DNA of 64,000 nucleotides, from assembly GCF_964204645.1 (NCBI RefSeq), contig NC_134030.1, positions 21,705,210-21,769,209 of the forward strand, in the 5' to 3' direction. The stretch is from Tubulanus polymorphus. Lineage: Eukaryota > Nemertea > Palaeonemertea > Tubulaniformes > Tubulanidae. Numbering within the stretch: the first letter of the stretch is position 1; the number at the start of each line of letters is the position of its first letter. The position numbers were made by a program, and so were the translations under genes. Below are positions 18,101 to 44,122 of the stretch, piece after piece. The notes under the pieces were generated by a model that was not told where the DNA came from, made no database searches, and saw only the letters and a program-made list of their open reading frames with translations.

Positions 18101-21100
18101 AACAAACAGTGCGAGTTATTAGAAACGTTACATAAGTCAATGTGATAAGTTTGCTGATCTTGCGCTGAGACATGCTTGCTCGTGGGGGGGGGGGGGGGGG
18201 TTCACGGTTGCGAATTTGATTCCTCAATCGAGTTAAACATGAACAGCGCCGATATTTTTGATCAAAGTAATGATTTAAGGCGAAAAACCCTTTTCAAAAT
18301 GTTTCGGAAGGCATAAGAGGGGGTGGGGGGGGTATAGTTAGCCACCCTATTCACCCCCTAGATCCGCCCCTGATAACAGTATAAAGTTTTCCCAGATACA
18401 ATACAAACCCCAGTCCTAGTAGTCCAGACCTATCCGCCCTTAGTATAGTCGCGACCAAGGCGGGAATCTCACGATGTCATCAGGTTCGAATCCCTGCCGA
18501 GCGAGGAACGTGATCGAGTCTGACGATGTCATCAGGTCCGAATCCCCGTCGAGGGAGGATGGTTCTTGTCTAGTACCTAGCCGTCGTTCCCCAAACAACT
18601 GTTGTAGGGAACCCGTAACGACGACTGGTATTCAGACTAGGATGGCTCAACCTCTGACAGGGTTTCAGAACTTTGCTAGGTCAGATATAAGTTTGCTAAG
18701 GCAGTATGCTTGTAAACAACCTTCACTAATGATTTGTCTTTTATCAGATTTTGAACCAGTTTACAAGAAATCCAGTGAAAATGAAACAAATGCAGCGTAT
18801 ATTGTAACAGTTAATAGTTACCCATTGACTCAACAAGTTACATGTGACCCTCCAGCTGTCGTTCAAAAACTATCAAACTATCAGTGGAATATAACGATAC
18901 CTATCGTAAATAGTACCACAACTGATTATGAAGGGCGATGTTTGGCTGACGGTATTAATGAAAGGGTCATTGATGTCGCTAGTTATCATAACGCCGGTCC
19001 AACTGATGAACCAGGTAAGATTGCGGGTCACAACTGGATGGATTTTACATGAATTGGAACAACCAATTCAGGTCCGGATCCAACATCAATTCAATCAATC
19101 AATTTAGGGAGCGCTCAAATAGTACGTACATTCTTAGAGGGGATGGGGATCGTGGAAGTACTAGGGGTGGGGGTTAAAAAAACTGCAAACCTGACCATAG
19201 GTATTATTTGAATACTCCCTTACTAAATGTAATTCATTATCTCGATTAGTCGTCACATCACTGAAGTCTGCTGTATTCTTTTGTCCCAATTTGTGTTTCT
19301 AATTCTTTTTACTAAAGTCAGGAGATGACCGCGTCGTAATTCGAGCTGAGCTTAGTTTAAGTCGTCTAAATCTAAGTCGTCATCTGGATAAGTCGTCACA
19401 TTACTGCGATTTTCTGAGTCAATTTTGGTTTCCGATTTAATTCGTGGATTTGGATACGTCAACATAATGGCAATAGTAGTGGAGTCTCGTGATATCATCA
19501 GATTTGAATCCCTGCACAGGATGACGTGATTCTTAGTATTGACTGAACTCAGCATATTTCATTATTTATCACATTCAAATATCACTTAACAAAATAATTT
19601 ACCAAAAATAACTCTACTTTACTTTATTTAGATGCTATTTAAGGAAGGAAAAAATACTTTTGACTTTTCAATCATTAGTTAATAGTTAAAACGTAATTAT
19701 TTCTAGCTTCTATATAATTTAATTTAATTGCTGATATGCTTGAATTTCAGTTTTGTCTTCGATTTAATTGCTGTTATTTTTATCACTAGTTACAATAGAA
19801 CAGCATAATAGCTTCACATGATTTAATATAAATTGCTGATGAATTCCAGATGAAGGGAATGGAGGCAGAGTGTTTGGTGCTGTAATCGGTGTACTGATAT
19901 TATTGATTCTAATAATACTGTTAATAATGTGGCGTCGTGGCTGCTGTAAGTTTGACCTAAAACCATCATTTAATCTGAAAAACAATGATAATCAAACTGC
20001 AGAATCAGAATACTGTATTTTTGTGTTTGGTTTTTATTGGGTTGTTTTGTCAGGTGATTGTGCATCATGTAGGACAAACAGTATTTCTGTTTTCTAATTA
20101 ACAGTACCGTGTTTGTGTCCGAAATCTAAAGATGTGATTGAATTGTTGCGTTGGACAAGTGAAACCTGGTATGAAAAAGGTAAGATTCTCTCACATGATT
20201 TACTGCGCATATTCTCAGATATCGGTTTGATAATGTTTAGGTGTTGTTTTCTCTTTGTAGATCATGAGAATTGGGTGAAAACACGTGACCAACCGCGACC
20301 AGGTATTTATAACCCTTTATTTCTATAACATGTTATGAACAACAGATATTGCTTCATTATCACAACTGTACTTATTAACTCGATTTTATGCTTTGTTAGA
20401 CACATTGCTGTTCATAGGTTGTCGTGATTGGAAACAAGATGGCCGCCTAGTGTTTTTCATTATTTCTGAAGATGCTTCTATCAATTGTGTTTACGTTTAA
20501 TCTGCAGCCAAATAATTGGCACGATCTTCCATTTTGCACATTTTTGAAGTTTTCTTTTGAATTCCTGGATCAATTGTGTTGACATTTGGTTTCTACCTTA
20601 GACACAATATGTACATCCCAAAACCTGGCTCACACCTGGTCACTAGCCATTGTTATTCACAGAAATCGGCACTATATCCACATTTTTCGAAGTTTTCACG
20701 GATATATTCCAAGAAATTTTAAAAGGTGTTTTGATCAATTGCTCTTGATGTTTGGGTTATACATATATCTACCCTAGATGTATCAGCAGTTCTGAAAATG
20801 TGATTGGAATCAAGACTGGCTGCTATTGTTGGTTGGTGGGGGCGGATTCAGAGGGTGTTCGGGGTTCGAACCCCCATCCCTCTTTTCCTTTCCAAGTGGC
20901 CAAAATATAGGCTTGTCATGCCCTGTACTGATCATGATCTAATATGCACAAACATTTCATAATAAAAGTGTACCTAAATCATTTAACTACTATAAGGATG
21001 TAACTAAATGATTTTTCGCTTCGTGACTGCGGCGCTTGCCGGGCCACCCTTAATAAAAAGTGCCCTTGAGGCGAACCCCCTTTCTGACAGCTTGGACCCG

Positions 21101-44122: not shown

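What the first reader, a model, noticed from the sequence alone, without database searches (positions are those of the whole stretch)
19850..44122. A roughly 920-residue cytoplasmic tail built from about 53 exchangeable phase 1-1 mini-exons
Each exon from the transmembrane exon to the last is 18-156 nt, a multiple of 3, and starts and ends in phase 1. No junction codon is a stop. Any subset can therefore be joined in frame. Symmetric phase-1 exons are well known for extracellular domains (Ig, EGF), but a long intracellular tail made only of them is unusual. Many cassettes are 48 or 54 nt (16-18 residues) and helix-like. This could be a combinatorial alternative-splicing system for intracellular signalling or scaffolding.
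Basis: partly seen in the sequence, partly recalled or inferred. Interest (0 to 1): 0.88.

Follow-up and report, generated by a model that had tools for sequence, protein, structure and literature searches.

The report
Immune-like receptor with mini-exon tail
A cluster of related cell-surface receptor genes in an invertebrate genome carries an unusually long inner tail pieced together from about fifty tiny, frame-matched exons, a design known from chicken BG genes; whether the pieces are mixed and matched in RNA is not yet known.

Summary
At 11987-44122 lies one gene model of 58 exons (1396 aa): signal peptide, four extracellular (weakly Ig-like) exons, one transmembrane (TM) exon, 51 internal tail exons of 18-156 nt, a terminal exon. 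All 57 introns are phase 1. Paralogue comparison supports the tail exons: in four neighbouring copies 165 of 169 mapped tail-exon cells (204 possible) keep AG, GT, frame and openness, against 30% of 806 null cells; 2731 aligned tail codons hold no stop. The gene belongs to a tandem family (18 places of tail exon 20, 15 within 1.1 Mb), alternating with copies of a second, short-tailed gene. An exon module occurs once or twice in six of seven compared copies. The tail is charged and amphipathic-helical; no homologue was found.

Not shown: alternative splicing (no RNA). "Any subset" is nearly true: 26 of 1326 ordered exon pairs make a stop, 19 from the TM exon.

Precedent: chicken BG genes (Ig, TM, long helical tail of many phase-1 21-nt exons, multigene). 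This family differs in exon lengths, ectodomain and host (probably lophotrochozoan). I read it as a convergent variant whose shown diversity is genomic; splicing diversity stays open.

The parts
11987..12101 (+). exon 1: start codon and signal peptide (phase 1 out)
   Evidence: translation
14264..14554 (+). extracellular Ig-like exon 1 (phase 1-1)
   Evidence: weak profile matches in PDB
16091..16423 (+). extracellular exon 2 (phase 1-1), Ig assignment weak
17034..17372 (+). extracellular Ig-like exon 3 (phase 1-1)
18748..19014 (+). extracellular exon 4 (phase 1-1), no Ig match of its own
19850..19945 (+). tail exon 1 = transmembrane exon, ends in T
   Evidence: hydropathy 3.48
20105..20179 (+). 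tail exon 2
20261..20302 (+). tail exon 3
22125..22169 (+). tail exon 4
22307..22381 (+). tail exon 5
22687..22734 (+). tail exon 6
22969..22998 (+). tail exon 7
23079..23129 (+). tail exon 8
23215..23277 (+). tail exon 9
23585..23668 (+). tail exon 10
24029..24076 (+). tail exon 11
24164..24202 (+). tail exon 12
24555..24572 (+). tail exon 13
24650..24697 (+). tail exon 14
24789..24842 (+). tail exon 15
24973..25020 (+). tail exon 16
25276..25344 (+). tail exon 17
25754..25783 (+). tail exon 18
26027..26065 (+). tail exon 19
26196..26351 (+). tail exon 20, the longest (156 nt), 18 genomic places
27230..27265 (+). tail exon 21
27349..27366 (+). tail exon 22 (module copy 1 begins)
27678..27725 (+). 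tail exon 23
27814..27891 (+). tail exon 24
28318..28365 (+). tail exon 25 (least supported: matched by alignment in Z, B and partly E only)
28692..28775 (+). tail exon 26
29830..29874 (+). tail exon 27
29973..30026 (+). tail exon 28
31682..31699 (+). tail exon 29
31893..31940 (+). tail exon 30 (module copy 1 ends)
32243..32332 (+). tail exon 31, ends in T
32414..32491 (+). tail exon 32
32582..32629 (+). tail exon 33
33406..33459 (+). tail exon 34
34084..34119 (+). tail exon 35
34329..34346 (+). tail exon 36 (module copy 2 begins)
36103..36153 (+). tail exon 37
36238..36315 (+). tail exon 38
36479..36526 (+). tail exon 39
36993..37076 (+). tail exon 40
37291..37335 (+). tail exon 41
37500..37550 (+). 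tail exon 42
38233..38268 (+). tail exon 43
38771..38788 (+). tail exon 44
40302..40355 (+). tail exon 45 (module copy 2 ends here or at exon 46)
40442..40483 (+). tail exon 46
40584..40625 (+). tail exon 47
41349..41375 (+). tail exon 48
41452..41484 (+). tail exon 49
41919..41954 (+). tail exon 50
42043..42096 (+). tail exon 51
42566..42607 (+). tail exon 52
43977..44122 (+). terminal exon with AADDSQS-type repeats and stop

Best explanation
A tandemly amplified family of receptors, probably of the Ig superfamily, whose cytoplasmic part is a long, charged, amphipathic-helical tail that grew by duplication of phase 1-1 mini-exons and of a multi-exon module. Because every tail intron is phase 1, exons and modules can be gained or lost without breaking the frame; paralogues indeed carry the module once or twice, and one copy lacks most of it. 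I infer that the tail works as a helical scaffold or self-association element (cytoskeleton or adaptor binding) rather than through tyrosine motifs, while the short-tailed gene that alternates with it carries tyrosine motifs. I infer that tail diversity is mainly genomic (between paralogues, probably also haplotypes), with exon skipping allowed but limited. Shown: gene structure, conservation, family, module variation, helical periodicity. Inferred: scaffold function, division of labour with the partner gene, limited splicing diversity.
For: 58-exon model, 57 of 57 introns phase 1. 165 of 169 mapped tail-exon cells intact versus 30% of 806 null cells. 0 stops in 2731 aligned tail codons; exonic indels multiple of 3 in 37 of 49 at 3.1-3.5/kb versus 205 of 901 at 17-22/kb in introns. 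29-53 of 56 exons matched in six further copies versus 1-2 of 56 in three unrelated 30-kb pieces. 18 places of exon 20. Module content differs between copies; hhalign sees the module duplication. One TM, 34.6% charged, P+G 4.8%, no ITIM, YxxM, YxN, NPxY or PxxP, two YxxI; helical periodicity z 6.2-6.4 at 95-100 degrees.
Against: No RNA or protein evidence of any kind. Plain nucleotide identity does not separate exons (0.907-0.912) from aligned tail introns (0.876-0.905); the case rests on frame, stops, indels and splice sites. Distal exons 23-52 change amino acids at about the neutral rate (pN/pS 1.09-1.30; p=0.28 against 1), which weakens a claim of tight function there. Ig support is weak. 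No binding partner known. Tyrosine motifs of the partner were read in the window's copy only.
Confidence: 0.6

Rival explanations
1. Combinatorial alternative splicing: most tail exons are cassettes and each gene makes many tail isoforms.
For: 1300 of 1326 ordered exon pairs join in frame without a stop; many exons of 18-54 nt; flanks of tail exons are more alignable than those of the Ig exons; chicken BG tails do vary by splicing, mostly intron read-through (passages of PMC5938342).
Against: No transcripts. Tail splice sites score about as high as those of the Ig and TM exons (acceptor 6.5 vs 6.7, donor 7.2 vs 7.6). Intron identity beyond 10 nt is no higher near exons than farther off. The TM exon ends in T in 7 of 7 copies, so 19 of its 51 forward joins in A make a stop. 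Symmetry also follows from exon duplication alone.
Confidence: 0.2
2. Frame-neutral passenger: the proximal tail (exons 2-22) is functional; the distal part is a loosely constrained extension kept in frame but with little specific function.
For: pN/pS 0.56-0.71 in exons 2-22 versus 1.09-1.30 in exons 23-52; the C9 copy has no match for exons 21-28 and 35-52, and 7 of these exons tested singly gave none either; module content varies.
Against: No nonsense codon in distal exons of Z, B, C, D in the map, although 6.4-9.0 per pair would be expected if neutral, or about half of that, because A's own exons were chosen to be open.
Confidence: 0.17
3. Chance: open AG..GT segments picked by eye out of introns.
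For: 26 of 78 greedily chosen, paralogue-supported segments of any phase overlap no model exon, so a single short exon could be wrong.
Against: Excess over shuffles, codon and indel signature, null segments and null pieces.
Confidence: 0.01

Closest known systems
Chicken BG genes (butyrophilin family)
   Same: Ig ectodomain, one TM, long presumed helical cytoplasmic tail from many small exons, codon split 1+2 at each exon start (phase 1), multigene cluster, tail exon number differs between genes, tail variation reported as selected while the Ig domain was not (passages of PMC5938342 and PMC4046983).
   Different: BG tail exons are 21 (18-24) nt heptads and there is one IgV exon; here exons are 18-156 nt, 8 of 52 multiples of 21, four extracellular exons, no repeat unit seen beyond the module, and a genome with miRNAs that I recall as lophotrochozoan.
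Schistosoma micro-exon genes (MEG)
   Same: Many very short exons, mostly multiples of 3, alternative splicing (passages of PMC10526429).
   Different: MEG proteins are secreted, with exons of 3 or 6 to 81 bp; here the array is the inner tail of a membrane receptor.
Titin PEVK and elastin exon arrays (recalled; no call supports their phases)
   Same: Long runs of small same-phase exons that allow in-frame skipping.
   Different: Sarcomeric or extracellular; not receptor tails.
Invertebrate Ig receptor clusters such as Hydractinia Alr (recalled)
   Same: Tandem Ig-like receptor genes.
   Different: No comparable mini-exon tail is known to me; not compared here.

Membership tests
Chicken BG genes | Single IgV ectodomain | tested here: not met
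   Four extracellular exons; V-set only E 0.11 in Pfam; best PDB profile hits for exon 1 are RPTP, otk, contactin and MuSK chains, with some antibody chains at weaker E
Chicken BG genes | Tail of 21-nt heptad exons | tested here: not met
   Lengths 18-156, 8 of 52 multiples of 21; periodicity highest at 95-100 degrees, though also high at the heptad angle 102.9 (z 5.4)
Chicken BG genes | Tail exons with phase-1 split first codon | tested here: met
   57 of 57 introns phase 1
Chicken BG genes | Multigene family with variable tail exon number | tested here: met
   18 places; module once or twice in six copies, mostly absent in F
Chicken BG genes | Intron read-through isoforms | not testable with these tools
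   No RNA; read-through after the TM exon is open for 11-82 codons in 7 copies, variable
Ig superfamily | Ig-fold domains | tested here: inconclusive
   Pfam Ig_2 25.4 bits (cut-off 27), C2-set_2 20.2 (21) for the whole ectodomain; singly, exon 1 Ig_2 E 0.026, exon 3 C2-set_2 E 0.0022, exons 2 and 4 no Ig family; PDB profile of exon 1 E 8.3e-4, of exon 3 E 0.16; two Cys invariant in exons 1 and 3
Schistosoma MEG | Secreted protein, no TM | tested here: not met
   One TM segment, hydropathy 3.48

The most novel reading that the evidence does not exclude
An intracellular counterpart of Dscam: each gene of a tandem receptor family splices its 51 symmetric tail exons combinatorially, so that cells differ in the inner scaffold rather than in the binding face, with distal exons under diversifying selection.
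Probability: 0.14. Interest if true: 0.92.

Novelty: new variant of a known kind. Interest (0 to 1): 0.62.

Why it matters
If right, receptor families in two distant animal groups independently evolved long helical tails from frame-neutral mini-exons, which points to a general way of evolving intracellular scaffolds fast. It also gives an unusual case in which the inner tail changes at least as freely as the outer face (pN/pS 1.09-1.30 in the distal tail versus 0.61 in the extracellular exons), and a set of clustered genes (15 places of exon 20 within 1.1 Mb) in which splicing diversity and copy-number diversity can be told apart directly with long reads.

Tried and rejected
Unconstrained gene-finder chain: 105 exons, 62 of them 1-1, 39 identical to exons of the final model; it over-predicts and was replaced by curated, paralogue-tested exons. 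Deep internal repeats: hhalign of the seven-copy tail against itself shows only the module duplication above 30% probability, so descent of all mini-exons from one unit is not supported. Tail homologues: no PDB match up to E 1; Pfam only a sub-threshold MIX match, E 0.0056, and sub-threshold matches of E 0.03 or weaker for the C9 copy, taken as chance. Positive selection in the distal tail: not significant in three disjoint pairs (p 0.28). Intron read-through after the TM exon: open length varies 11-82 codons, not conserved. COX1 search for the taxon: no match. Bantam pattern: no exact match.

In some searches the matched exons of other copies had to be open and symmetric, so their openness, their multiples of 3 and their order are partly by construction; the unbiased counts are those, and the control for one search is. 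One search used extracellular exon boundaries that were off by one; they were corrected.

Full report
What is there. The window is G000:C6:21705210-21769209 of a 267.8 Mb genome. From 11987 to 44122 on the + strand runs one gene model of 58 exons and 57 introns, all phase 1, CDS 4191 nt with the stop, 1396 aa: signal exon, four extracellular exons, a TM exon (19850-19945), 51 internal tail exons and a terminal exon (43977-44122). Median intron 302 nt. Tail 916 aa.

More than chance. With generic metazoan splice matrices (recalled, written into the script), open symmetric segments in 19850-44122 are 40 in phase 1 versus 13 and 7 in phases 0 and 2 at acceptor>=5 and donor>=6; three shuffles of 200-base blocks give 7, 4 and 1 in phase 1. 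A chain found with no phase preference is 62 of 105 in phase 1-1, and 39 of its exons are identical to model exons, though it over-predicts.

Paralogues. Four neighbouring long-tailed copies were aligned to this copy, A (Z, B, C, D), and two more, E next door and F on contig C9, were compared exon by exon. In the unconstrained A-to-Z/B/C/D map, 169 of 204 tail-exon cells are mapped; 166 keep both splice dinucleotides, 168 a length that is a multiple of 3, 168 are open, 165 pass all. The four failures are at 37500 in B, 29973 in C and D, and 42043 in D; one search finds an open symmetric exon at or beside each of these places. Of 806 mapped cells from 629 null AG..GT open segments in the tail introns, 30% pass all. 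Across 2731 aligned tail codons there is no stop; shifted frames of A give 51-105 stops per pair; exonic indels are multiples of 3 in 37 of 49, intronic in 205 of 901, at 3.1-3.5 versus 17-22 per kb. Nucleotide identity alone does not tell exons from aligned introns (0.907-0.912 versus 0.876-0.905), but 82-96% of exon bases align against 38-53% of tail-intron bases.

The exon-by-exon search matched 46, 45, 52, 52, 53 and 29 of 56 exons in Z, B, C, D, E and F; the same search matched 1, 2 and 1 of 56 in three 30-kb upstream pieces, two of which overlap. Of 22 unmatched cells looked at singly, 11 show an aligned counterpart (exon 25 in Z, B and partly E; 27 in B; 18, partly, and 35 in C; 29, 38 and 49 in D; 13 and 29 in E) and 11 do not (25 in C and D; 52 in C; 4, 21, 22, 23, 26, 35, 45 and 52 in F). 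Exon 25 is the least supported exon of the model.

Family. The longest tail exon, exon 20, has 18 places in the genome: 15 in C6 21.69-22.83 Mb, one at C6 18.07 Mb, one each on C9 and C19 (a lower bound by the tool's own note). In four of the 18 rows the alignment contains a stop; for the C9 row the exon itself is open, so there the alignment runs into the intron; the other three were not examined. Copies of a second gene alternate with the long-tailed ones: 10 of the 66 places of its Ig-like exon are at least 92% identical to the window's copy (that copy included), lie at C6 21.75-22.08 Mb and fall between exon-20 places. The window's copy of that gene ends in repeats with YMDM, YIDM and YVNT; the tails of the other nine were not read.

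Modules. Exons 22-30 and 36-45 are duplicates of each other. A, C, D and E carry the module twice, Z and B once; F has matches for exons 29 and 30 but none for 21-28. In a genome search with exons 23-35, hits to the exon-26 peptide lie near 15 of the 18 exon-20 places, one, two or three each; none is listed near C9, C19 or 22.268 Mb; two of the three at 21.96 Mb are 269 bases apart, so that case may be a single-exon duplication. Two partial duplicates inside tail introns, after exons 12 and 34, with weak acceptors, look like raw material of such growth.

Selection. Pooled pN/pS over pairs of 7 copies (not independent): extracellular exons 0.61; tail exons 2-12 0.71, 13-22 0.56, 23-36 1.09, 37-44 1.15, 45-52 1.30. 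In three disjoint pairs (AZ, BC, DE) the extracellular exons are clearly below 1 (p 1.5e-6), tail 2-22 marginally (p 0.07), tail 23-52 not different from 1 (p 0.28). The distal tail thus changes amino acids at about the neutral rate, yet no nonsense codon is seen in Z, B, C, D, where 6.4-9.0 per pair would be expected if neutral, or about half of that since A's exons were chosen to be open. This is not proof of positive selection.

What the tail is like. One TM segment; tail 34.6% D/E/K/R, 4.8% P+G; no ITIM, YxxM, YxN, NPxY or PxxP; two YxxI and three dileucine-type motifs. Hydropathy periodicity is far above shuffles at 90-103 degrees, highest at 95-100 (z 6.2-6.4; 5.4 at the heptad angle): amphipathic helices, coiled coil not excluded. 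No PDB relative up to E 1 and no Pfam family above its cut-off.

Ectodomain. Ig support is weak: whole ectodomain Ig_2 25.4 bits (cut-off 27) and C2-set_2 20.2 (21); singly, exons 1 and 3 give sub-threshold Ig families and exons 2 and 4 none; the profile of exon 1 reaches RPTP sigma at E 8.3e-4, that of exon 3 IgLON5 at 0.16.

Exchangeability. No adjacent junction makes a stop, but 26 of 1326 ordered pairs in A do, 19 from the TM exon; in all seven copies the TM exon ends in T, and 11-19 of its forward joins make a stop. Skipping ahead from the TM exon would therefore often truncate the receptor just inside the membrane. Exon-end bases are G 35, A 14, T 2, C 1 of 52, near the usual donor preference (recalled), so the rarity of stop junctions needs no special selection.

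Splicing. I had no transcripts. Indirect signs are ambiguous: tail splice sites score like those of the Ig and TM exons; identity beyond 10 nt of intron is no higher near exons than farther off; but tail-exon flanks are more often alignable than Ig-exon flanks. The symmetric phases are explained by growth through exon duplication inside phase-1 introns; they permit skipping but do not show it.

Organism. One exact let-7 site, two miR-1992 and three miR-1994 sites close together, no exact bantam. If I recall the clade ranges of these miRNAs rightly, this is a lophotrochozoan; the species is not identified.

Comparison with the known. Chicken BG genes were read in passages (PMC5938342, PMC4046983): signal, IgV, TM, then 13-36 small exons of 21 (18-24) nt encoding a presumed coiled-coil tail, first codon of each exon split 1+2, exon number variable, variation in the tail reported as selected while the Ig domain was not, isoforms by intron read-through. 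The present family resembles BG in architecture and mode of variation but fails BG membership (four extracellular exons, heterogeneous exon lengths, no heptad exon unit). Schistosome micro-exon genes (PMC10526429, passages) share the exon sizes but are secreted. My searches for a described invertebrate counterpart (listings only) showed none among the rows listed; this covers only the held open-access library and those terms.

Verdict. Observation confirmed; interpretation partly supported; a probably convergent, more heterogeneous variant of the BG mini-exon tail, with genomic diversity shown and splicing diversity open.

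Noticed in passing
14093-14310 (and copies Z, B, C, D): 82-bp tandem repeats each carry the acceptor of extracellular exon 1, its first 42 nt (a multiple of 3, phase 1) and, with one weak exception, a GTA-type donor: 3 exact-start matches in A, 9 in Z, 5 in B, 6 in C, 8 in D, the last one being the true exon start where the scanned stretch reached it. They could be extra cassette exons or decoy acceptors.
   Followed up: partly
46839-50201: Short-tailed gene with an exon like extracellular exon 3 and a tail of YxDM/YxNT repeats; 10 places of its Ig-like exon (itself included) alternate with the long-tailed genes.
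   Followed up: partly
about 53465-64000 and beyond: Second long-tailed copy (B), continuing to about 78.6 kb in window coordinates.
   Followed up: yes
33742-33762 and 24380-24403: Partial tandem duplicates of tail exons 34 and 12 with donors of 11.1 and 5.6 and weak acceptors: candidate nascent mini-exons.
   Followed up: partly
34946-35398: Open frame with CCHC zinc-knuckle-like motifs (by eye) inside the intron between tail exons 36 and 37, perhaps a retroelement fragment.
   Followed up: no
28815-29753 and 30266-31373: Long 22-bp and 14-bp tandem arrays in tail introns; the 22-bp array recurs in other copies.
   Followed up: no
G000:C6 near 21.988-21.999 Mb and 22.095-22.105 Mb: Two long-tailed genes with mostly identical hit scores about 106 kb apart, perhaps a recent segmental duplication or an assembly duplicate.
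   Followed up: no
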